Shown: in pieces, positions 8,443 to 21,939 of the stretch | Layout of the letters: every line of letters starts with the position of its first letter | How positions within the stretch are numbered: the first letter of the stretch is position 1 | Source: Verrucomicrobia bacterium Tous-C9LFEB | Lineage (GTDB): Bacteria; Acidobacteriota; Terriglobia; Terriglobales; Acidobacteriaceae | Length of the DNA stretch: 54,950 bases | Assembly (NCBI GenBank): GCA_903970445.1 | Contig: CAJCIP010000035.1 | Span: forward strand, 1 to 54,950 | Direction of reading: 5' to 3' | Position numbers and translations under genes: made by a program | Notes under the pieces: generated by a model | The model's input: the letters and a program-made list of their open reading frames with translations, nothing else | What the model was told of the DNA's origin: nothing | The model's database searches: none

Positions 8443-8921
8443 TATCGACCGCGTTTCTCAGCGAAGATAGGAGATTCCGATACTGGCTGTTGCGCGTCTG
8501 GGACGAAACGCTACCCTGCTTGTGCGTGATCGGCTTAAATCCGTCTACCGCAGACGAAACGGTGGATGACCCGACAATTCGCCGCGAGATCGCGTTCTCC
8601 AAACGCGACGGCTTCGGAAGTCTTCTGAAACTGAACCTGTATGCCTATCGCGCGACAAAACCGTCCGATATGTGGAAGGCGCAGAAGGCGGGGACGGACA
8701 TTATCGGTGGTGCTCGCAACTGGTGCGACGCGATGAAAGAGAATGCCGGACGCCTCGGATGTACGACAGTGATCGCGGCATGGGGCCTTCACGGAAAGAA
8801 GCGAGGGCCGGATATAGCCGCTCGTTGGCCGGGCTTGAAGTGCTTCGGCAAGAACGACGACGGAACACCCAAGCACCCTTTGTACCTCAAGGGCGATACT
8901 GAGATTGTGGAGTACGCATGA
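8439..8921 (+). CDS. DUF1643 family protein
   Basis: This 160-residue protein matches the DUF1643 pattern common in phages and mobile elements: an N-terminal FRYWLLRVW strand, then the signature CVIGLNPSTADETVDDPTIR (residues about 29-48), and a later AWGLHGK segment. The biochemical function of DUF1643 is not established. It is coupled to the preceding gene and overlaps the PP-loop protein downstream by four bases, a pairing that suggests a shared metabolic or modification role. Confidence 0.8.
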   Translation: MISTAFLSEDRRFRYWLLRVWDETLPCLCVIGLNPSTADETVDDPTIRREIAFSKRDGFGSLLKLNLYAYRATKPSDMWKAQKAGTDIIGGARNWCDAMKENAGRLGCTTVIAAWGLHGKKRGPDIAARWPGLKCFGKNDDGTPKHPLYLKGDTEIVEYA

Positions 8922-9715
8922 AGCATGTCGTTTGTTTTAGCGGAGGCAAGGACTCAACCGCTTTGATACTGTGGGCGAAGGAGAACTTGTCTGAGTTCAC
9001 GGCGGTCTTTTGCGATACAGGGTGGGAACATCCATTGACGCTGGCCTACATAGCCAAGATCAACGCCGATCTGCTAGATGGCAAACTCATCACGCTTACC
9101 AGTTCCAAGTACCCAAAGGGGATGCGGGAGCTTGTCGCAATCAAGAAGCGCATTCCGTCCGCTAAGGCTAGATTCTGCACATCCGAACTGAAAGTCCTGC
9201 CGATGATCGAATGGCTGAAGACGCAGGACGACGAATGCACGATCTACCAGGGCATCCGAGCCGACGAATCCGCCAACCGGGCGCTTATGCCTGAGCGCGA
9301 ATGGAGCGACGACTACGATTCGCTTGTGGTGCGCCCTCTAATCGCATGGAAGGCCGAACAGTGCTTTGCACTGATGGCGGAGAAGGGTGTGAAGCCCAAC
9401 CCTCTCTACCTGATGGGCGCAGGGCGCGTAGGATGCTTCCCTTGCATAATGGTCAACCAGCGCGAACTGAAGGCGCTTATGAAAACGATGCCTGATATCA
9501 AAACAGCGATAGCGGAACTCGAAGCGATAGCGGAGAGGTCATTCTTCCCGCCGAACTATATCCCCGCACGGTTTCACACTGGCTGGGACCCGAAGAGCGG
9601 CATGAGCTTCCCCAAGTGCAAGGACGTGTTCCGGTACATCGAAAAGACAGACGAGGATCAGCTACCTCTCTTCGCCCCAACATCCTGCATGAGCGTCTAC
9701 AACCTGTGCGAGTAA
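8918..9715 (+). CDS. PAPS reductase-like PP-loop protein
   Basis: This 265-residue protein has the adenylating PP-loop SGGKDST at residues 8-14, followed by an FCDTGWEHP strand as in PAPS reductase / DndC-type enzymes of the adenine-nucleotide alpha hydrolase superfamily. Cysteines in FCTSELK and in VGCFPCIM may bind metal or an Fe-S cluster. Phage members are often of unknown substrate: sulphate assimilation, phosphorothioation-like or nucleobase thiolation are the options. I see no dnd partner genes, so DNA phosphorothioation is not supported. It overlaps the DUF1643 gene upstream. Confidence 0.8.
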   Translation: MKHVVCFSGGKDSTALILWAKENLSEFTAVFCDTGWEHPLTLAYIAKINADLLDGKLITLTSSKYPKGMRELVAIKKRIPSAKARFCTSELKVLPMIEWLKTQDDECTIYQGIRADESANRALMPEREWSDDYDSLVVRPLIAWKAEQCFALMAEKGVKPNPLYLMGAGRVGCFPCIMVNQRELKALMKTMPDIKTAIAELEAIAERSFFPPNYIPARFHTGWDPKSGMSFPKCKDVFRYIEKTDEDQLPLFAPTSCMSVYNLCE

Positions 9716-9719
9716 CCCT

Positions 9720-10355
9720 ATGAGTCTCATTGAAGCTTTCAAACAAGACCACTACCGCTACGGAAACCTCCAGTCGATCCCATACGACAAGAACCGCACG
9801 GACGTGTTTCCCGAAGGGTTCCTGGGGCGGCTCTATTTTTCCCTGAAAGGGTCGCGCTTCCATAAGACCCGAGACGGCGACCAGCTTTTAGCTATGCTGT
9901 TCTGCGGAATGGTGGATCTCAGTTTCGACAAGATCGTCTCCTACATGGCCTCCATCCCCCTCTGCATTATGGGCATCTGGCAGTCCGACGGAACCTTCAG
10001 GCCCGCTGGCATCCACTTCATTCCCACAAAGACCGGCGTCGGCGCGGAGTCGATGGCCTTCGGCGGCTACGGCTTCCTGAAGGAGTATTGGGGGACTGAG
10101 GAGCAGGAGAGCCTCACCGTGCTCGGCATCGCGCAAATCTTCGGCGAACTCAACATCAAGCAGTTGCACGGGATGCGCTACAGCACGAACGCCTTCACGG
10201 CGCGGTACATGGAGCGTTTCGGGTTCCGAGACCTCTGCACGATTCCAAACTACATGATGCGCGGGAATAAGATGGTGGACGGGGTTCTTTCTACGCTGGC
10301 GAGAAGCGATTTTGAGTTGAACTTAACCCACAGGCTGCTGGCGGCTGCCAAATAA
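9720..10355 (+). CDS. GNAT acetyltransferase-like protein
   Basis: This 211-residue protein resembles phage acetyltransferase-fold proteins such as those in the T7 internal-virion region: an N-terminal IEAFKQDHYRYGN helix, a central strand pair (IPLCIMGIWQSDG, AGIHFIPTKT) and a C-terminal RYMERFGFRDL segment typical of GNAT helix 4/strand 5. The acetyl-CoA P-loop is not obvious, so catalysis is uncertain. It begins four bases after the PP-loop gene and precedes the ejection-protein cluster, which supports either a modification or an internal-virion role. Confidence 0.5.
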   Translation: MSLIEAFKQDHYRYGNLQSIPYDKNRTDVFPEGFLGRLYFSLKGSRFHKTRDGDQLLAMLFCGMVDLSFDKIVSYMASIPLCIMGIWQSDGTFRPAGIHFIPTKTGVGAESMAFGGYGFLKEYWGTEEQESLTVLGIAQIFGELNIKQLHGMRYSTNAFTARYMERFGFRDLCTIPNYMMRGNKMVDGVLSTLARSDFELNLTHRLLAAAK

Positions 10356-10422
10356 TTCTGCCCTAAGAATCCAATCGAATCCCCTGAAATGTTACCGTGG
10401 CGGGTAGGTAGGCTACGTGCAA

Positions 10423-11223
10423 ATGGGTGTCATCTACAAAATCACGAACACGGTGAACGGCAAGTGCTATGTCGGTAAGACGATGTGCGGCGAGGTGAAG
10501 CGCTTCCGCGAGCATAAGTGGAACTGCAATAACGGCACCAAGTCCTACCTGTACAACTCCATGCGTAAGTACGGCATCGCGAACTTCAGCATGGAAGTGA
10601 TCGACCACGCGCAGACCGAGGCGGAACTAGACGCTAAGGAAATTGAATGGATAGCCAAGCTGCAGGCCGCCGACCCAAGATTTGGATATAACTGCACTCC
10701 CGGCGGGGAAGGGGCTTTGCATGGCCCATCGTCCCGTGCCCGGCTGAAGGGCGTAATTAAGCGTAGTCCAGAGGTTATCGCGGCGCTCAAAGCGCGCATC
10801 ATCTCCGACGAGACAAGAGCGCTTCAGTCGAAGGTAGCCAGAGAGAGAGAGGCCCGGTTCACCCCCGAGCAGCGTAGCGCTAAGGCGCGACACGCCGCCT
10901 CAGTATCTGCTGAGAAATTAAGGGGAGTTCCTCGCACACTGGAAGTGCGAATGAAGATCAGTGTCGCGCATAAGGGCAAGAAAATTCCTCTTGATCGCAT
11001 CCTCAAGCAAGCGGCTAGCTTGAGAGGGCGGAAGCAACCTGCCGACGAGATAGCGCGTCGAGTGGCGACAAGCAAGAAGATTTGGGCAGACCCCGAGAAG
11101 CGTAAGGCGCATGGCGATTCGATTCGTGGTCGCAAGCATTCTCCTGAGACGATTGAGCGAATGAAGATTGCAGCAGCGGCACGGCTGGCTAAATATGGGC
11201 CGTCCAGAAAGGCTAAGGCATAG
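10423..11223 (+). CDS. GIY-YIG homing endonuclease with NUMOD3 repeats
   Basis: This protein of about 266 residues begins with GVIYKITNTVNGKCYVG, the GIY and YIG strands of the GIY-YIG nuclease fold, followed by a catalytic-type Arg (FREHKWN) and Glu region. The C-terminal half holds NUMOD3-type DNA-binding repeats, seen as GKKIPLDRILKQAASLRGRK and a second SIRGRKHSPETIERMKIA. Such free-standing enzymes cut target DNA to spread themselves and are not needed for phage growth. ATG 10423 is preferred over GTG 10417. It sits between virion genes, a usual place for homing endonuclease insertion. Confidence 0.88.
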   Translation: MGVIYKITNTVNGKCYVGKTMCGEVKRFREHKWNCNNGTKSYLYNSMRKYGIANFSMEVIDHAQTEAELDAKEIEWIAKLQAADPRFGYNCTPGGEGALHGPSSRARLKGVIKRSPEVIAALKARIISDETRALQSKVAREREARFTPEQRSAKARHAASVSAEKLRGVPRTLEVRMKISVAHKGKKIPLDRILKQAASLRGRKQPADEIARRVATSKKIWADPEKRKAHGDSIRGRKHSPETIERMKIAAAARLAKYGPSRKAKA

Positions 11224-11224
11224 C

Positions 11225-11945
11225 ATGGGAAAAGGAGGAGTGGACGCTGCAAATTCTCAGCAACAGACCGACCAGAATGCCTTAACCCAAATTGCGATGG
11301 GTCAGGCGAACAATGCGAATACGCTATTCAACGCCTCCCTGCCTGGATTTCAGACTGCAGAAAACCACTATTCTGCTCTTGCTTCGGGAGACCCGTACGC
11401 AATTGCATCGGCCATTGCGCCACAGGCGCAACAGGCAGACCAGCAAGCGGCCAGCGCGAAGCAAAACATCCTTCAAAATGGTCCAGCGGGCGGAGAAAAG
11501 AACCTCGCGCTCGAGCAGGTGGACGTGAACCGTGGCGCGACCGTGGGCAATGCAGCCTCAAGCGGATATTCTGGGTCGTTCAACGCGCTTGCGCAGCTTG
11601 CGGGGCAAGGGGTAGGAGAGTCGCAGAGCGCAAGCGGCCAAGCACTTTCGGGCTACGGAACCGCAGGCGGCATGGCATTGCAGGAGCAGAACCTCCAAGT
11701 CCAACAGAAAGGGAATACTCTAGGTGCCCTGAGCTCACTAGGTGGTGATGCAGCCACCTTGTTTGCAGGGAAACTTTGACGGGTCTAGCGGCGGTTCCCC
11801 TAACATTGATGGCGGCGCGGGCGCAGACCCGCTTGGCCTCAATGCGGCATCGGGTAATCCGTACGGCTTATCGAACTGGGGCGCGCCTTCGAGTTTTGCT
11901 CCGATCTCGAGTCCGCAAAATCCAAATGCCCTGTTTAGTTCTTAG
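11225..11945 (+). CDS. Virion-associated protein made by +1 frameshift
   Basis: The zero frame (ATG 11225, AAGGAGG nearby) encodes 184 Ala/Gln/Gly/Asn-rich residues ending ATLFAGKL at a TGA (11777-11779). At this stop lies a +1 frameshift site of prfB type. The +1 frame then runs 55 more codons (DGSSGGSPNIDGG to NPNALFSS) to a TAG at 11943-11945. The composition of the extension matches that of the zero-frame protein. The expected products are a 184-residue protein and a 239-residue extended form. The gene precedes the two large putative ejection proteins and may be a small internal virion protein. A separate ORF starting at 11742-11748 is the alternative explanation for the extension. Confidence 0.7.
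11767..11780 (+). promoter_or_regulatory. prfB-like programmed +1 frameshift site
   Basis: In frame the sequence reads GCA GGG AAA CTT TGA C. CTT TGA C is the slippery stop site of the bacterial RF2 gene, and AGGG lies exactly three bases before CTT, as the internal Shine-Dalgarno does in prfB. On the established prfB model, CUU-decoding tRNA slips onto UUU when UGA termination is slow, so the ribosome continues at GAC. If used, frameshifting would be sensitive to RF2 level. Confidence 0.7.
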
Positions 11946-11964: not shown

Positions 11965-14127
11965 ATGGCCGCTGGATATAACCCGCTCAACCCGCAACCC
12001 TACACTCCGCCCGAGTTGCCACAGCAGACGCAGCCTGGCACCGAGCCCATGCCCGCAAAGCCTTCACCGTTTGGTGGGCAGCCGGGGTATCAGTTTACGC
12101 AGGGCCCCATCTCACATGGCGGGGCTATTGCCGGTATTGCGGACAACGTTCTTCGTGGGATTGTGAACGGCCACGCGCAGGGTGAGCAGTACAAGGCGCT
12201 GAAGTTGAAGAAGCAGTCCGACGATTTGAATGCGTCGTATCAGGCGGACGCGCAGCGGCTTTGGCAGGTGGCTCAAAACCAGTATCAAGCGACGGGCAAG
12301 GTTGACCCAAACTCCGATGAGTACAAGCAGGCAAAATCGGCCGTAGATGGGTCGTGGGGTTCACTGCAGCAGTTTCGCGGAACGCTGATAGACCAGCAGG
12401 GCGGCGGTAAGAAAAAGGGCGGCAAGAAGCAGCAGGACGAAAAGCCGCCGCAAGCCGTGTTGACCGACCCGAGCTCGACGCCTGAAGAGAAGATGAAGGC
12501 GATCTACGCTATCTCCGGGAAGTTGGGAGCTCCGGTATATGGGCAGGTGGCCCAGTTCAACACGCCACGCGCACAGCAGGCATGGCACGCGCAACAACAG
12601 GGCGCGGACACGGACGCGGCGAAGGCTGAGACCGAAGCGACAATGGCGAAGATGCAGAACCGCATCGCTGTGTTGAGCGCGAAGGACAACCTGACGCCGC
12701 AGGAGATTACAGAACTCGGGGATGAGGAGGAACGGTACAAAAAGCTCCGCGACCTCAACACTCCCTCGAAGGAATCGGCGACGACGCGCGAGTACGTTTC
12801 GCCCGACGGCAAGCAGACATCATGGTATGTCCCTGGTCACGAGCCGGAAGGGTGGAACGCGTACAACAAGCCAGCGGCATCAAGCGCTCCGAAACTCGGA
12901 ACGCTTGGCGGGTCAATGGCGCAGTACGCCAAAGAGAACGGCATGGACCCCAACAATATGCCGCTCGCCGCACAGAATTATGTCCGCGCCTTGGCTCACT
13001 GGTACGGGGTCGGCGATACGTCGTCTACCACGAACACGCTAAAGGTGGACATGAACAACCAGTGGGTTCCCATCACGGAAACCAACTCGCGTAGTCGTGG
13101 CCCCATGCCGCAGCCTCCTCCGGGGATGAAGGTTCCGAGCTTCGTGTCACCTGATTCGGCGACTCCACCTGCACCGGCGACCGTCACGCAGTCATTCAAG
13201 GGAAAGAGTGTTCCGGGCATGGTGGCTCCCGGAAACGTGGATATTGCGAACCGCCCGAACATAGACAACGGTGATGGCACGCACAGCAGCGTGTTTTCGA
13301 TGAGTTTCGGCACGGATAAGGGCGAGGTTCTTGTCCCCGGGGTTGGCGACGGTAAGACATACCCGGCGCGCAAGTTGACAGAGCAGGAGGCGTGGGATCA
13401 GTACAAGAAGACCGGTCAGAATCTTGGCACCTTCAAGACCCCCAAGGATGCCGATGCCTACGCGCAGACGCTTCACGAAGATCAGCAAAAGTACGGCAAT
13501 GCTCCAGCCGCAACCCGACGCGAGAAGCCGCAACGTACAGCGCCAAACTCCCCTCTTTCGACTTCCGCATCGCCGCGATCTAACGTAAGGGTCGGAACTC
13601 CGCTGATGGGAGCGATGGACCCCGTGCTCAAAGGAATGGATCAAGAAACGCATGATGCCATCATCGCCTACAACACGGCAAAGCGGGCGATTGAACACCC
13701 AAACGCGCCCAATACAAATGAGATGGTGCTGGCTTTTGCACGCGAGATTTCAGGGCAAAAGAGTATTCGCAGTATGCCCCAGCTTGAACTTGAGTTCAAG
13801 GCCGGAACATTGGATCAGAGGCTGAACAGCATTTATCAGCGTTGGAAGAATGGAACCCTTGATCCCACTGTTATGAGCCAAATGGCAGAGGAGATGAGGG
13901 CGAACGCCAAGTTCAAGCGCGATGCAGCCGTGGCCGAGCGGACACGTCGAGGTCAAGGGACGGTACAGGGCAACGGTTCTCCGGCGGCTCCGGCGGCAAC
14001 CCCGCCCCCAACTCAGTCCAAGGGCATCGTGAGCGTCGACCAGGCGATGACCCTGCCAAAGTACAAGGGCAAGTCGCGGGATGAAGTGACCGCCGCTATC
14101 ACGGCACAGGGGTATACGCCTCAGTGA
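11965..14127 (+). CDS. Large internal virion protein candidate
   Basis: This 720-residue hydrophilic protein is rich in Gln, Lys and Pro at the N-terminus, and has a long helical central region. Residues about 420-515 contain NVDIANRPNIDNGDGTHSS, then EVLVPGVGDGKTYPARKLTE and DADAYAQTLHEDQQ, a conserved module I associate with phage internal or lysin-type virion proteins. A second low-complexity Pro/Ala linker precedes the C-terminus. GTG of the next gene overlaps its TGA. Ejection-protein role is inferred from size, position and module; no enzyme site is evident. Confidence 0.55.
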   Translation: MAAGYNPLNPQPYTPPELPQQTQPGTEPMPAKPSPFGGQPGYQFTQGPISHGGAIAGIADNVLRGIVNGHAQGEQYKALKLKKQSDDLNASYQADAQRLWQVAQNQYQATGKVDPNSDEYKQAKSAVDGSWGSLQQFRGTLIDQQGGGKKKGGKKQQDEKPPQAVLTDPSSTPEEKMKAIYAISGKLGAPVYGQVAQFNTPRAQQAWHAQQQGADTDAAKAETEATMAKMQNRIAVLSAKDNLTPQEITELGDEEERYKKLRDLNTPSKESATTREYVSPDGKQTSWYVPGHEPEGWNAYNKPAASSAPKLGTLGGSMAQYAKENGMDPNNMPLAAQNYVRALAHWYGVGDTSSTTNTLKVDMNNQWVPITETNSRSRGPMPQPPPGMKVPSFVSPDSATPPAPATVTQSFKGKSVPGMVAPGNVDIANRPNIDNGDGTHSSVFSMSFGTDKGEVLVPGVGDGKTYPARKLTEQEAWDQYKKTGQNLGTFKTPKDADAYAQTLHEDQQKYGNAPAATRREKPQRTAPNSPLSTSASPRSNVRVGTPLMGAMDPVLKGMDQETHDAIIAYNTAKRAIEHPNAPNTNEMVLAFAREISGQKSIRSMPQLELEFKAGTLDQRLNSIYQRWKNGTLDPTVMSQMAEEMRANAKFKRDAAVAERTRRGQGTVQGNGSPAAPAATPPPTQSKGIVSVDQAMTLPKYKGKSRDEVTAAITAQGYTPQ

Positions 14128-17100
14128 CCGAACAGACCCAACAGCCGGATGACTTTGCCGCCATCGCAAAGCCCATTGCTCCCGCCAAGGCTCCAAAGCC
14201 TGTAGCGGCTCCCATTGCCACGCCCGGCGACGACTTCGCGCATATTGCAAAGCCGCACGACGCTGGTCCCAAGGACGACCTCGCTCCCCCATCCATGCAC
14301 GACCTCGCCTCGTCGAACCCGAAAAACGAAGGCTTGTACCACATGAAGGATGCGGACGGCCATTCATACGCTATCCCGTATTCCAACGTGGAGGCCGTTC
14401 CGGACTTCCGCAGCAACTTCGCGACCGAGAAAGAAGCTCAGAGGTACGAGCAGGATCGGCACCATGAGAATTCGATATTGAGTCCAGTGAAGGACTTTGC
14501 CGGAAGGGTTCGCGGGAAAATAAACGACCTCACGGAGCCGACGTACGACTATGAGAACTCCACGGCGGCGGGTGTAGGCGAAGGGGATCTTGGAACTTCG
14601 GAAATGCTGATGAACATCGTGAAGCGCGGCGTTCGCGGAACTGTTGGATTGGTCGATTTGCCGCCGACGATATTCAAGGCGTTCAAGGATCTCGCTTCTC
14701 GTGACGAGAAGGTGGCAGATGCGGGCGAGGAGCAGTTGTGGCACCTTTTGCCGCACGAAATGGCGATTCAAGCCATCAAGGGATACAACGAAGACCGCAA
14801 GAAAGACCCCCAGAAGGCCATCGAAAACATCACAGGTGACGTGTTGGCAGCATATGCCACCGGGAAGCTAGTAGAGGGTTCTGGTGGCGCTCTGAAAGCC
14901 GCCAAGGAGACGGTAGGCAAGGCTCCCGAAGCGGTCAAGACTGCGGTAGCGAGAAAACTTGCCGGTACAGGTGAGGGGTTCACGAAGCGGGAGGTAGCAG
15001 AGCAGGCAACAGCCAACAAGGAAACAGCCCGCAAGGCGAGAGAAGAGTACGACCCTGAGTATAAGCAGAGGGTAACTGACACCGAAGAGGCCAATACCAA
15101 GGCACAGCAAGATTTCGAGAAGGCAAAGCAGAAACGGCAAAACCGCGTGACCGAGAAGTTGAAGCGCAGCGAGACTTTGCAGAAGGCGAAGACGCGCGTA
15201 TTTCAGCACATTAACGACGTGCATGACGCCGCCGTCAACTACTTCAATGAGCAGTACGACAACCTTGCCAAGCAGACCAGTGGTGCTCGCGTAGAACTGT
15301 CTCCCTTGACGGAAGCGGTCGAGACGGCAAAACTTAGGGACTTGGCTGACCCCATTACTAAAGTCCCAGTATTTGAGGACATACTCAAGAAGTCCAAGGG
15401 CGAGGCTGGTGAGGGTGTCGACGCCCGTCCGCCCGCAAACTGGGACGAGATGAGCCTGGATGAACGTAACGCTTGGCGCGACGAGCAACTGACTGCAAGC
15501 GGAGCGACGTATCGTTACTTGCTCGGAAAGTATCGTCAAATCGGAAAGTTGATGAAGAGCCCAAGTCTGCCCGAAGGTGTGCGGACTGGTTTGGCAAACG
15601 TGCGCAACGTCATTGAGACGATGCAGACGCAGGCGGCGAAGCTGGCAGACGAGCAAGCCCCTGAGCGCTACGAAGAGGCTTTGGCTGAATGGGAAAAGGA
15701 TGTTGAGGAGCGTGGCGCGGACAAGGCTGGAAAGAAGCCGGAGATGCCAAAGCGGAAGGCTTCGCGCATCAACTACTCCATCGGCGCGGCGTATCGAAAC
15801 TTCGCAGAATCCTACCGAGATCCCAACGCAATTGGAACGAAGATTGTCAACGCCCCGACGGCTGAAAGAGGCACAGCGCTACTACTGAAAGACCTCCCAG
15901 ATGAAGACCTCAGCGATGCGAAGCGGACGCTGATCGGAAAAGAGGGAGCAGGGGGCAAAGAAACCCATGCGACGCAGTGGGCTGGTCGCAACGCGGCTGA
16001 AGACTCCACGGGTAATCGCCGTCTCAACACATCGCAAAAGCGCCGGCAGACATCGCGCCTCATCGACAACCTCCGGAAAGCGCAAGCGGATTTCGATGCG
16101 GTGCCTGACCCCGGATCAGCCCCTAAATTGAAACTGGCGGAGCCGCCCGATTACGAACCTCCACAAGAGGAAGGGTATAGCGAAGAGAAACTGAAGAACC
16201 GCAGGGAAGAGCAAATCAATCGGCGTGTGGCCTTCTATTCAAGCCCCGGATTCCGTATAGGAGCGAGAGGCCTGACAGCGTTTGGAATCGCGGATATTGT
16301 CGCTAAGGTGCTCGGGTTTCACGAAGGGGTAGCATTGACCGCTGGCGGAGTTTCCGCCCTGTCGTACCTTGTACCGGCTCAGATCGTAAAACTTCTGACT
16401 GACCCGGCGATACAGGAACGGATGCTGAGCATCACGGCGAAGGATCGAGAGGTGCTGGCGAAGCTCCCAGCTAACCAGCGTGCTGTTGTAGAGCAGAACA
16501 TTATCAACATGGAGAGGGTTGGAAAACAGAAAGGACTCATTCCTAAGGATTCCCCCGTTCCCCTCGCCAATTTCGCGAAGCAGGACATCGTGAAGGCAAA
16601 GGCGGAGGCGGCCAAGCCCAAGCCCGAACCTCCACCAGAGGAGCCACCACCAGCCACAGCACCCAAGCCGAGCGGTCCGAACAGCCCGGCACTCCCCGGC
16701 ATGGAGGGAGCAGTTGCCGAGCAGGAAGCGGCCGCTCACAAGACCGAGACGCAGCGGCAAGAGGCCGAAGCATCCCTCGCCACCCCGAAGGATGACATAA
16801 GCCGCGCTACGGGCGAAATGGAGCGCAACAGCCCCTTGTTCCGTGACAGCGAAGCCAGCGGGCAAGGTGGACTGTTCAACCAGCCAGAGGCGGAGCCGCG
16901 CAACAATGTTCAGCCCTCCCGTCGCCTCGAAGACCTCAAGGTCGATCCGAAGCGTTTCCAGTACAAGTTGGGCGGGAACAAGGCTGGGGTTACGGACGCG
17001 CTCTCGGACGCGAAGTGGAATCAGCAACCCGCAAGCCCGATTCACATTTGGGAAGATCCCGAAGATGGAAACGAGTACGTTGTCAACGGCCATCACCGCT

Positions 17101-17927
17101 ACGACCTCGCGCAGAAGGGCGGAGCCGAGCGCATCAACGTGGAGAAGTGGGACAACAAAAAAATCAAGACGGCGGCAGAGGCTCGGCATCTGGCGGCGCT
17201 GATAAATATCGGTGAAGGCAACGGGACATCCATTGATGCCGCGAAGTTCTTCCGCGATAGTGACTTCACCTACGACGACCTCAAAAAAGAAGGAATCAGC
17301 CTCAAGAAATCAGTTGCCAACGAAGGTCTATCGTTGACCAAACTGAACAATGACCTCTTCGATCAAGTAGTAGATGGGCGCATCGACCCATCGTTAGGCG
17401 CCGCCATCGGGGACGCAACGGAATCCCCGGCAGAACAAGAGGCCATTCTGAAGGACGTGCGACGCCGCGAGAAGCAAGGCCATTCGGTGAGTGCGGCTCA
17501 AATCAAGGAATCGGCACGGCTCATCAAGCAATCCCCGACCTTTACCGAGACCACGCAAGACTTGTTCGGCAACCACGAAGAGGAGCGCAACCTGTTCCTT
17601 GAGATGGGTGAGGTCTCAGAGTACATCCAGAAGGAACTGGCGGATGAGAAGCGCATCTTCAAGCGCGTGGCGACGAAGGGTGCAAGCGAGCAGTTAGCCA
17701 AGGGCAAGAACGTCATCAACCCGGAAGAGAACGCCAAGATTGCGCAACGTGCCGCTCAACTGCGAGAGTTGTACATGAAGCGCAGCGCACAAACCGGGCC
17801 GATCCACGCAGCGCTACAGGAAGCCGCCGAACGGCTGGCAGAGGGAGGGAAACCCAATGAGATTAAGCAGGACGCGCTCGACGAAATCCGCGAACACCTC
17901 GAAGACGAACTCGGAACCCCTGAATGA
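14124..17927 (+). CDS. Giant virion protein with ParB-like domain
   Basis: This 1267-residue protein starts with GTG overlapping the previous stop. It has Ala/Pro-rich N-terminus, a long charged coiled-coil region (about 290-360), a hydrophobic pair of helices near 705-755 (LTAFGIADIVAKVLGF, ALSYLVPAQIVKLL) and a Pro/Glu linker. A ParB/Srx-type fold near residues 935-1050 carries NGHHRYDLAQKGG, the ParB-like nucleotide-binding signature, with VDPKRFQYK upstream. Such mosaics are typical of polyvalent proteins injected with phage DNA. The membrane-like helices would fit a channel-forming ejection protein. ParB assignment is strong, ejection role is inferred. Confidence 0.7.
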   Translation: MTEQTQQPDDFAAIAKPIAPAKAPKPVAAPIATPGDDFAHIAKPHDAGPKDDLAPPSMHDLASSNPKNEGLYHMKDADGHSYAIPYSNVEAVPDFRSNFATEKEAQRYEQDRHHENSILSPVKDFAGRVRGKINDLTEPTYDYENSTAAGVGEGDLGTSEMLMNIVKRGVRGTVGLVDLPPTIFKAFKDLASRDEKVADAGEEQLWHLLPHEMAIQAIKGYNEDRKKDPQKAIENITGDVLAAYATGKLVEGSGGALKAAKETVGKAPEAVKTAVARKLAGTGEGFTKREVAEQATANKETARKAREEYDPEYKQRVTDTEEANTKAQQDFEKAKQKRQNRVTEKLKRSETLQKAKTRVFQHINDVHDAAVNYFNEQYDNLAKQTSGARVELSPLTEAVETAKLRDLADPITKVPVFEDILKKSKGEAGEGVDARPPANWDEMSLDERNAWRDEQLTASGATYRYLLGKYRQIGKLMKSPSLPEGVRTGLANVRNVIETMQTQAAKLADEQAPERYEEALAEWEKDVEERGADKAGKKPEMPKRKASRINYSIGAAYRNFAESYRDPNAIGTKIVNAPTAERGTALLLKDLPDEDLSDAKRTLIGKEGAGGKETHATQWAGRNAAEDSTGNRRLNTSQKRRQTSRLIDNLRKAQADFDAVPDPGSAPKLKLAEPPDYEPPQEEGYSEEKLKNRREEQINRRVAFYSSPGFRIGARGLTAFGIADIVAKVLGFHEGVALTAGGVSALSYLVPAQIVKLLTDPAIQERMLSITAKDREVLAKLPANQRAVVEQNIINMERVGKQKGLIPKDSPVPLANFAKQDIVKAKAEAAKPKPEPPPEEPPPATAPKPSGPNSPALPGMEGAVAEQEAAAHKTETQRQEAEASLATPKDDISRATGEMERNSPLFRDSEASGQGGLFNQPEAEPRNNVQPSRRLEDLKVDPKRFQYKLGGNKAGVTDALSDAKWNQQPASPIHIWEDPEDGNEYVVNGHHRYDLAQKGGAERINVEKWDNKKIKTAAEARHLAALINIGEGNGTSIDAAKFFRDSDFTYDDLKKEGISLKKSVANEGLSLTKLNNDLFDQVVDGRIDPSLGAAIGDATESPAEQEAILKDVRRREKQGHSVSAAQIKESARLIKQSPTFTETTQDLFGNHEEERNLFLEMGEVSEYIQKELADEKRIFKRVATKGASEQLAKGKNVINPEENAKIAQRAAQLRELYMKRSAQTGPIHAALQEAAERLAEGGKPNEIKQDALDEIREHLEDELGTPE

Positions 17928-18880: not shown

Positions 18881-20002
18881 ATGATACGCACTTACACAAT
18901 GCGACTCAAGCCGACCAAGCGGCAACAAGTGAAACTGAACGATCTGCTTGAGCATTTGTGCGTGCTGTACAACTCCGCTCTTGAGCATAGAAAGAGGTCA
19001 TGGGAGCAACTTGGAAAGCCAGTAATGTACTACGACCAACAAAGAGCGTTAACGGATTTCCGAGGGAAATCGCTTGAGGTATTTAGCTTTCCTTTGACTA
19101 TTCAGCGCGATCCCCTTCGGCGCATAGATAGAGCATTTAAGGCATTTTTTAGGAGGGTAAAAGCGGGCGAAAAGCCTGGATACCCACGATTCAAAACAAA
19201 AACATCGTACAACTCTTTCAATGTAGCGGAAAGATTTAGCGTTAACGGGAGTTGTCTAAAGATAGCAAGACTTGGGAATTTTAGATTTAAAACTAAGTGC
19301 AAAGTAAAGGGCTCATTCAAAACAATAAACATCGCACGTCGAGGCAATCGTTGGATTGCAAACCTAGTTTGTGACATTGGCGAGGCACCAGCGAAACGCC
19401 CCGTGTCAAATGCTGTTGGTATTGATCTCGGAGTGACTACGCTGGCGACCTTGAGTGATGGAACAGAGATTGCGAATCCACGCTGGATCAAGCGCGAGGA
19501 AGGGCGGCTGGCAGAAGCGCAAAGAGTGTTGGCGCGCAAGACCAAGGGTAGCAAGAATCAGGCAAAGGCAAAAGAACGAGTACGTAGGGTCTATCAGCGA
19601 ATTGTTGGTTCGCGCAACGCCTACACTACGACAGTTGCGAAGAAGCTGATCGGGCAATATGATCTGATCGCGCACGAAAAGTTAAACATCAAGGCGATGG
19701 CGCAGTACGGCTATCTCGGAAAATCCATCATGGATGCGGCGTGGGGTAAATTGATCTGGCGTCTCAATTGCGAAGCTGAAAAGGCTGGCAAGTGGGTCAT
19801 CCCGGTCAACCCGCGCAATACCACGAAGGCTTGCAGTGGTTGCGGTGAACTCGTACCAAAGACCCTTTCGCAACGGACGCATTGTTGTCCAAGTTGCGGG
19901 TTGGTGCTCGGGCGGGATCACAACGCAGCCGTGAATATACTTAGGCTCGGTGAGAGCCTTGTCGAAAGGCAGAAAATTTGTTTGGAGGGTATAGCAAATT
20001 GA
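18881..20002 (+). CDS. tnpB: TnpB RNA-guided nuclease (IS200/IS605-type)
   Basis: This 373-residue protein is full length for TnpB. The RuvC-like triad is intact: D182 in GIDLGV, E266 in AHEKLNI and D346 in DHNAAVN. The zinc ribbon C318/C321 and C336/C339 sits between the last two. N-terminal helices (MIRTYTMRLKPTKRQQ) are typical. TnpB cuts DNA guided by an omega-RNA from its own 3' end. There is no TnpA nearby, only 12 bases separate it from the upstream gene, and its TGA overlaps the TTG start of the next, so no room remains for normal IS ends outside the coding region. The AT-richer codon use suggests recent acquisition. Confidence 0.95.
   Translation: MIRTYTMRLKPTKRQQVKLNDLLEHLCVLYNSALEHRKRSWEQLGKPVMYYDQQRALTDFRGKSLEVFSFPLTIQRDPLRRIDRAFKAFFRRVKAGEKPGYPRFKTKTSYNSFNVAERFSVNGSCLKIARLGNFRFKTKCKVKGSFKTINIARRGNRWIANLVCDIGEAPAKRPVSNAVGIDLGVTTLATLSDGTEIANPRWIKREEGRLAEAQRVLARKTKGSKNQAKAKERVRRVYQRIVGSRNAYTTTVAKKLIGQYDLIAHEKLNIKAMAQYGYLGKSIMDAAWGKLIWRLNCEAEKAGKWVIPVNPRNTTKACSGCGELVPKTLSQRTHCCPSCGLVLGRDHNAAVNILRLGESLVERQKICLEGIAN
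19943..19970 (+). ncRNA. Candidate omega-RNA hairpins at the tnpB 3' end
   Basis: Two small hairpins share bases: GGCTC (19944-19948) with GAGCC (19954-19958), and GCCTT (19956-19960) with AAGGC (19966-19970). They lie about 30 bases before the tnpB stop, where TnpB omega-RNAs carry structured scaffold. If functional, the guide segment would fall in the 5' end of the next gene. Evidence is structural only. Confidence 0.35.
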
Positions 20003-21864: not shown

Positions 21865-21939
21865 GCTGGGATAGCTCAGACGGTAGAGCAGCGATCGTAA
21901 GGTCGTTGGTCGGGGGTTCGACTCCCCCTCCCTGCCCCA
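21865..21939 (+). tRNA. tRNA-like gene without a normal anticodon loop
   Basis: The acceptor arm GCTGGGA (21865-21871) pairs with TCCCTGC (21929-21935) apart from a U-U at 3-70. The D-arm GCTC/GAGC encloses AGACGGTA, the T-arm GGGGG/CCCCC encloses TTCGACT, and CCA is encoded (21937-21939). The region that should form the anticodon arm (21890-21907) cannot make a five-pair stem with a seven-base loop. It folds best as a seven-pair stem closed by a GTAA tetraloop, or as a five-pair stem with an eight-base loop. No isotype can be assigned. It may be a non-decoding tRNA mimic, a frameshift-type tRNA or a degenerate gene. Confidence 0.65.

What the first reader, a model, noticed from the sequence alone, without database searches (positions are those of the whole stretch)
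11225..11945. prfB-type +1 frameshift signal in a phage virion gene
At the stop of a 184-codon Ala/Gln/Gly-rich ORF the in-frame sequence is GCA GGG AAA CTT TGA C. CTT TGA C is the slippery site of the RF2 gene, and AGGG sits three bases before CTT exactly as the internal Shine-Dalgarno does in prfB. The +1 frame continues for 55 codons of matching composition (Gly/Ser/Asn/Pro) to a TAG. A phage using the RF2 autoregulation signal to make two versions of a virion protein would couple virion composition to host termination-factor level. I know of no such use.
Basis: partly seen in the sequence, partly recalled or inferred. Interest (0 to 1): 0.85.

Follow-up and report, generated by a model that had tools for sequence, protein, structure and literature searches.

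The report
Release-factor frameshift signal in phage gene
A soil-phage gene that probably makes a DNA-injection protein ends in the ribosome-slipping signal bacteria use to control release factor 2, and related phages suggest the phage uses it to make a second, longer form of the protein.

Summary
The 184-codon gene (11225-11779) ends GCA-GGG-AAA-CTT-TGA-C and a 55-codon +1 frame follows. The gene sits where the small ejection protein sits in a T7-like cassette. Homologues lie on 24 viral contigs. Three of these 24, plus the window, carry an extra reading frame exactly at this stop. One (L001, 59% identical protein) keeps AGGG-NNN-CTT-TGA-C although all three spacer bases differ. Another (L003) ends CCC-TAG-C, a known kind of +1 shift site, with no start codon in the extension frame near the junction. 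The third (L004) has a clearly homologous extension peptide, reached through an ATGA overlap. The other 21 contigs lack the extension and the signal; a few have longer tails in frame. Best reading: a +1 programmed frameshift makes a minor, C-terminally extended ejection protein. Virion proteins extended by a +1 shift are known (SPP1, PSA); I found no report of the RF2-type cassette outside prfB. Coupling to host RF2 level is unproven and weakened by the TAG and ATGA versions. The Shine-Dalgarno pairing is weaker than in the bin's own prfB. There is no protein or reporter evidence.

The parts
11225..11779 (+). Gene X, zero-frame product of 184 aa, Ala/Gln/Gly-rich and helical; in the position of the small ejection (gp14-like) protein
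   Evidence: homologues on 24 viral contigs; synteny; model
11767..11770 (+). AGGG, Shine-Dalgarno-like element three bases before CTT
   Evidence: duplex AGGGA with the 16S tail -4.9 kcal/mol; AGGG kept in L001
11774..11780 (+). CTT TGA C: slippery leucine codon, stop codon and weak +4 base
   Evidence: identical in L001; the +4 base is C in 4 of 4 rows with the extension and 2 of 20 without
11778..11945 (+). Extension in the +1 frame, 55 codons plus TAG; polar, S/G/P/A/N-rich, mostly low-confidence and unstructured in the model
9720..10355 (+). 211-aa gene upstream; called acetyltransferase-like only from its position (compare Tunturi_2 gp35), not compared with gp35 directly
   Evidence: tblastn hit upstream of X in 22 of 23 viral loci and in L028; no phrogs or Pfam hit
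10417..11223 (+). GIY-YIG homing endonuclease between the 211-aa gene and X
   Evidence: phrog_314, E 3.4e-37
11965..14127 (+). 720-aa gene in the gp15 (tunnel) position
   Evidence: about residues 415-510 match proteins some of which are annotated IVP-C-like or DNA transfer protein
14124..17927 (+). 1267-aa gene in the gp16 position
   Evidence: by position; C-terminal match to a large protein in the cassette of autographivirus S31C1; its best phrogs label is portal protein, which does not fit and was not resolved

Best explanation
Gene X encodes the small ejection (internal virion) protein of a podophage-type injection cassette. At its stop codon a prfB-type cassette makes a minority of ribosomes slip +1: the ribosome pauses at the poor stop TGA-C, the AGGG upstream pairs with the 16S tail, and the leucine tRNA on CTT re-pairs with TTT. 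Translation then continues for 55 codons and makes a 239-aa form in which the hydrophobic, small-residue C-terminus is followed by a polar, probably disordered tail. Shown: the sequence elements, their retention in a distant homologue, a coding-like extension frame, and homology of the extension peptide in another relative. Inferred: that X is a virion protein (synteny only), that the shift happens, its rate, that both forms enter the virion, and what the tail does.
For: Signal exact. L001, at 59% protein identity, keeps GCAGGG-NNN-CTT-TGA-C while the spacer and nearby bases change. L003 ends CCC-TAG-C with a 53-codon +1 frame and no ATG/GTG/TTG in that frame between its upstream stop and the junction. 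The window and L004 extension peptides align with a score that 0 of 5000 shuffles reach. Over 20 codons of that block there are 6 synonymous and 5 non-synonymous codon changes, against 1 and 9 in each other frame (the block was picked because the peptides align, which favours this outcome). Codon usage favours the extension frame over both others in 4 of 4. The +4 base is C in 4 of 4 rows with the extension against 2 of 20 without, Fisher p 0.0014 (seen before it was tested). The prfB of the bin and its relatives carry a site of this type, 18 of 18. The zero-frame C-terminus is of the ordinary family type.
Against: Only two sequences, the window and L001, carry the full signal. The Shine-Dalgarno pairing is weaker than in prfB and ends nearer to CTT. 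The motif is not enriched in the genome bin. L001's sister L005 lacks the extension and the four carriers do not form a clade. The L001 and L003 extension peptides are not detectably similar to the window's or L004's. The codon-usage scores of the extensions (0.12 to 0.14) are lower than the mean of known genes (0.26), and stops weigh down some of the other frames. L004 reaches its extension through an ATGA overlap. Distant L029 and L018 have longer tails in frame. There is no protein or reporter evidence, and that X is a virion protein rests on synteny.
Confidence: 0.72

Rival explanations
1. The extension is a separate small gene, translated by internal initiation in the +1 frame (ATG 11748, GTG 11742 or 11745, TTG 11763) or by reinitiation after the stop, and no frameshift is needed.
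For: An ATG lies ten codons before the junction in the extension frame in both the window and L001. In L004 the extension can start at an ATGA overlap.
Against: Shine-Dalgarno pairing before those window and L001 starts is weak, -1.1 to -2.0 kcal/mol (the three bases next to each start were left out). The ATG is a by-product of the GAT-GCA codons of the zero frame. L003 has no start codon in that frame before codon 22 of the extension (that GTG does have SD pairing of -6.6). It does not explain the prfB-like signal kept in L001.
Confidence: 0.13
2. The extension is an untranslated or decaying remnant, or the frame break is an assembly error, and the signal is chance.
For: RGG-N4-CTTTGAC is not enriched in the genome bin (16 against 19 for the reversed control). 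A 55-codon opening alone is weak evidence; several extension-less homologues also have chance open +1 frames running into the next gene.
Against: L001 shows the same arrangement on another contig. Protein-level similarity with L004, coding-like codon usage in 4 of 4, and a zero-frame end matching the rest of the family.
Confidence: 0.1
3. The cassette is a true RF2 sensor: when RF2 is scarce or the host runs down, more extended ejection protein is made and virions change. (This adds a purpose to the best explanation and overlaps with it.)
For: The stop is TGA-C in two distant relatives, and the prfB of the bin and its relatives, 18 of 18, uses the same type of site.
Against: L003 uses TAG and L004 an overlap, so dependence on RF2 is not conserved. 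The pairing is weaker than in prfB.
Confidence: 0.12

Closest known systems
prfB (release factor 2) autoregulatory +1 frameshift
   Same: SD-like purines, CTT slippery codon, TGA stop and +4 C in the same order and letter spacing; present in prfB of the bin and relatives, 18 of 18
   Different: Here it sits at the end of a phage gene, the zero-frame product is a full-length protein, the SD pairing is weaker, and the product is not a release factor
SPP1 gp17.1/gp17.1*; Listeria phage PSA capsid and PSA/A118/A500 tail +1 frameshifts
   Same: A +1 shift at or near the end of a virion gene gives a C-terminally extended form; L003's CCC-TAG resembles their CCC-UAA and CCC-UGA sites (passages of PMC6316719 and PMC5009743)
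   Different: Proline CCC sites instead of CTT with an internal SD; tail or capsid proteins, not an ejection protein
T7 gene 13-14-15-16 ejection cassette
   Same: Gene order and lengths: 184, 720 and 1267 aa here; 196, 747 and 1318 aa in T7 (PMC8954989)
   Different: No sequence similarity to T7 gp14; the word frameshift does not occur in the review PMC8954989; a homing endonuclease gene is inserted here
Tunturiibacter phage Tunturi_2 gp32-gp37
   Same: gp32 matches the window's 1115-aa protein over 26%; similar order; gp36 shares the SGDPxAxAxAxAP stretch with X (hhalign probability 63%)
   Different: gp36 is 166 aa and annotated only as hypothetical; gp37 was not among the hits of the window's 720-aa protein

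Membership tests
prfB-type frameshift cassette | CTTT slippery sequence with a TGA stop followed by C | tested here: met
   CTT TGA C in the window and in L001
prfB-type frameshift cassette | SD-like sequence approaching AGGGGG three nucleotides before CTTT (PMC12421855) | tested here: inconclusive
   AGGG three letters before CTT in both; duplex -4.9 (window) against -6.9 (bin's prfB) kcal/mol, and the paired stretch ends 2 nt before CTT in the window
prfB-type frameshift cassette | Located inside prfB and autoregulates RF2 | tested here: not met
   The gene lies in a phage cassette; the bin's prfB is on another contig
prfB-type frameshift cassette | Frameshifting occurs and responds to RF2 level | not testable with these tools
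   needs a reporter
+1 frameshifted phage virion proteins (SPP1, PSA) | Coding-like extension frame directly after the stop of the gene | tested here: met
+1 frameshifted phage virion proteins (SPP1, PSA) | The gene encodes a virion protein and both forms are in the virion | not testable with these tools
   virion protein inferred from synteny only; needs mass spectrometry
T7 gp14 ejection protein | Place and size in the gp14-gp15-gp16 operon | tested here: met
T7 gp14 ejection protein | Sequence or fold similarity to T7 gp14 or its counterparts | tested here: not met
   hhalign probability 0.2% with T7 gp14, 0.4% with an SPN1S internal virion protein, 0.05% with the S31C1 protein in this place; no PDB sequence hit; no PDB fold match below E 1. 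In BFVD 7 of the 50 listed weak matches are named internal virion protein, none with E under 0.02
[quoted passage not shown]
   Highest 19-residue hydropathy is 0.93 to 1.35 in 8 of 24 rows examined, at or next to the C-terminus; below the usual 1.6 (recalled). No transmembrane predictor was run

The most novel reading that the evidence does not exclude
The phage has captured the RF2 sensor as a gauge of host state: the fraction of extended ejection protein in new virions rises when release factor 2 runs short late in infection, so that virions made in a failing cell differ in their injection apparatus.
Probability: 0.1. Interest if true: 0.85.

Novelty: new variant of a known kind. Interest (0 to 1): 0.6.

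Why it matters
The RF2 cassette is the textbook autoregulatory frameshift. The PRFect paper states that all CUU-stop +1 entries in RECODE are prfB genes (passage of PMC10885494). A phage gene carrying it, kept between distant relatives and replaced in others by a CCC site or a start-stop overlap, gives a natural series for asking what is selected: the RF2 link or the two-form product. It would also add a probable ejection protein to the virion proteins made in two lengths.

Tried and rejected
Chance motif: the motif alone is not enriched in the genome bin; kept as a rival but judged unlikely on the comparative evidence.

Internal start at ATG 11748: tested by SD pairing and by L003; judged less likely.

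Finding the extension elsewhere, in frame or as a separate gene: scans with the window extension and with the window and L004 extensions aligned found nothing. The second scan's patterns fit L004, yet L004 was not returned, so these scans are not sensitive and the negative means little. A DNA pattern for the end of X returned only the L001 contig.

More relatives: scans 15 and 16 added no new contig. 0 in genome contigs. The genome search found 3 of 396 in the phylum including the window, 1 of 399 in the class and 1 of 397 in the order, the single one each time being the window. Of the two others, L028 was used for synteny only. L029 lies on the reverse strand; one search read it only forwards, and one search then showed an X-like protein with a longer polar tail in frame. 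No named phage record has X by tblastn.

A first impression that some relatives lack the prfB site was a strand error (only one strand was scanned); one search shows the site in 18 of 18 full-length prfB loci (L030-L047).

Structure: no PDB match of weight; the model is poor (mean pLDDT 63). Downstream RNA folding was computed for three sequences without a shuffle control, so nothing is claimed. No 16S was found in the bin; the tail was read in three relatives.

Rows dropped: L007 (same X as L006) was left out of A4, the tree and the synteny count. L021-L026, L061-L065, L067, L069 and L088 repeat contigs already held.

Literature: searches listed no report that I recognised of the RF2 cassette in a phage gene; one search returned no paper and mostly unrelated ones. 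Passages seen: PMC12421855, PMC6316719, PMC10885494, PMC5009743 (first 300,000 of 475,107 characters held; one search showed 12 of 19 places) and PMC8954989. Other papers were seen only in listings. The original SPP1 and PSA papers were not seen.

Full report
What is there. The window is contig C35 of a 3.68-Mb genome bin; by its gene content (for example RecT- and DnaB-like genes) it is a phage contig, and that the bin is its host is an assumption. Gene X runs from ATG 11225 to TGA 11777-11779, 184 codons. Its end reads GCA GGG AAA CTT TGA C. The +1 frame continues from GAC 11778 for 55 codons to TAG 11943-11945.

What gene it is. The 720-aa gene downstream shares about residues 415-510 with proteins in 19 phage records, some annotated IVP-C-like, DNA transfer or structural protein, and has a relative downstream of X in 16 of 23 viral loci. 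The 1267-aa gene matches, near its C-terminus, a large protein that follows tail tubular protein B in autographivirus S31C1. It also matches proteins labelled DNA methylase in Vibrio and Shewanella phages and phrog_21, labelled portal protein; these labels do not fit and were not resolved. Lengths 184, 720 and 1267 parallel T7 genes 14, 15 and 16 (196, 747 and 1318 aa, PMC8954989). In the acidobacterial phage Tunturi_2 a similar order occurs (gp35 acetyltransferase, gp36, gp37), and gp36 shows a weak profile match to X. X therefore sits where the small ejection protein sits. It is not recognisably related to T7 gp14 or to the counterparts in SPN1S and S31C1, and its hydropathy does not suggest several membrane helices. 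I describe the position and do not file it as gp14.

Relatives of X. Five protein scans gave homologues on 24 distinct viral contigs. Of these, L001, L003 and L004 have an extra open frame between the stop of X and the next gene. The other 21 do not: judged by eye from the printed ends, a likely next start lies within about 40 bases of the stop in 20, and in L016 somewhat further. In L001 the end is GGA GCA GGG TTT CTT TGA C followed by a 43-codon +1 frame. AGGG and CTTTGAC are kept while all three spacer bases differ, and the two proteins are 59% identical. In L003 the end is ATA CCC TAG C with a 53-codon +1 frame. In L004 it is TTT ATA TGA C with a 51-codon extension in the other frame, which can start at the ATG overlapping the stop (ATGA). 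An alignment of the four junctions suggests one extra base in L004 after the stop. Some extension-less homologues have longer tails in frame, such as L018 and the distant L029; these do not obviously align with the extension.

Is the extension coding? The window and L004 extensions share AGADPLGLN...GNP.GLS; the local score is reached by 0 of 5000 shuffles. Over 20 aligned codons of that block 9 are identical, 6 differ synonymously and 5 non-synonymously in the extension frame, against 1 synonymous and 9 non-synonymous changes in each other frame. The block was chosen because the peptides align, so this count leans that way. A codon-usage score trained on window genes favours the extension frame in the window, L001, L003 and L004 (+0.12 to +0.14, against -0.25 or less in the other frames, where stops are penalised; mean of known genes 0.26). 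The control put the true frame first in 136 of 137 chunks, but those chunks were part of the training set. The L001 and L003 extensions are not detectably similar to the others, so their kinship rests on position, composition and the aligned junction.

How it would be reached. CTT TGA C with an upstream purine run is the RF2 mechanism (passages of PMC12421855 and PMC5009743). The bin's own prfB has CGGGAG TAT CTT TGA C (L040), and the site is present in 18 of 18 full-length prfB loci of the bin and its relatives. Three relatives of the same genus have the 16S tail CACCUCCUUUCU. The window signal is plausible but weaker, and its pairing ends two bases before CTT. L003's CCC-stop is of the type used by SPP1 and the Listeria phages, and the PRFect paper cites CCC and UUU as the next most slippery codons at this site (PMC10885494). 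L003 has no start codon in the extension frame between its last upstream stop and the junction, so only a shift would link that frame to X. In the window and L001 an internal ATG exists ten codons upstream, with weak SD pairing; this remains a rival.

Pattern across the family. The base after the stop is C in 4 of 4 carriers and 2 of 20 non-carriers (p 0.0014), and the stop is TGA in 3 of 4 against 1 of 20 (p 0.008; L007 left out as a copy of L006). These contrasts were seen before they were tested, and the rows are related. The carriers are not a clade: L001's supported sister L005 lacks the extension and ends CTT TAG G. Supported branches force at least two changes, though most of the tree is unresolved. 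The extension has thus been lost, gained or exchanged more than once, and where present it is kept outside the main frame in three different ways. That argues for selection on having two products, and against RF2 sensing as the common purpose.

What the longer form may do. The zero-frame C-terminus holds the most hydrophobic stretch of X in the 8 of 24 rows examined. The extension is polar and slightly acidic, and the fused model gives it low confidence and little structure (pLDDT 44-51 over residues 181-220, 61-64 over 221-239). I infer that a minority of subunits carry a covered C-terminus, perhaps to limit membrane or subunit contacts or to bind the 720-aa partner. This is inference only.

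Verdict. A programmed +1 frameshift with an RF2-type cassette at the end of a probable ejection-protein gene is the best explanation (0.72). The kind, frameshift-extended virion proteins, is known; this signal in this place is a new variant. RF2-level control of virion make-up is possible but poorly supported.

Noticed in passing
window 21865-21939 (+): A tRNA gene with encoded CCA (Rfam tRNA 48.8 bits) whose anticodon arm is unusual: ARAGORN reads a four-base anticodon gtaa in an eight-base loop, while folding alone gives a four-base loop.
   Followed up: partly
window 10417-11223 (+): A GIY-YIG homing endonuclease gene lies directly before X.
   Followed up: no
window 18881-20002 (+): An IS605 OrfB/TnpB-like transposase gene inside the phage contig.
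   Followed up: no
window 8918-9715 (+): A gene matching phage phosphoadenosine phosphosulfate reductase families (phrog_424) within the structural region.
   Followed up: no
L016:3571-3615: The X homologue ends in TGA followed in frame by a Gly-rich stretch (GGGGIFGGVGGR, read by eye) to the next TGA, which could be stop-codon readthrough.
   Followed up: no
L001:3680-4051: An extra small reading frame lies between the extension and the 720-aa-type gene (read by eye).
   Followed up: no
   Followed up: no
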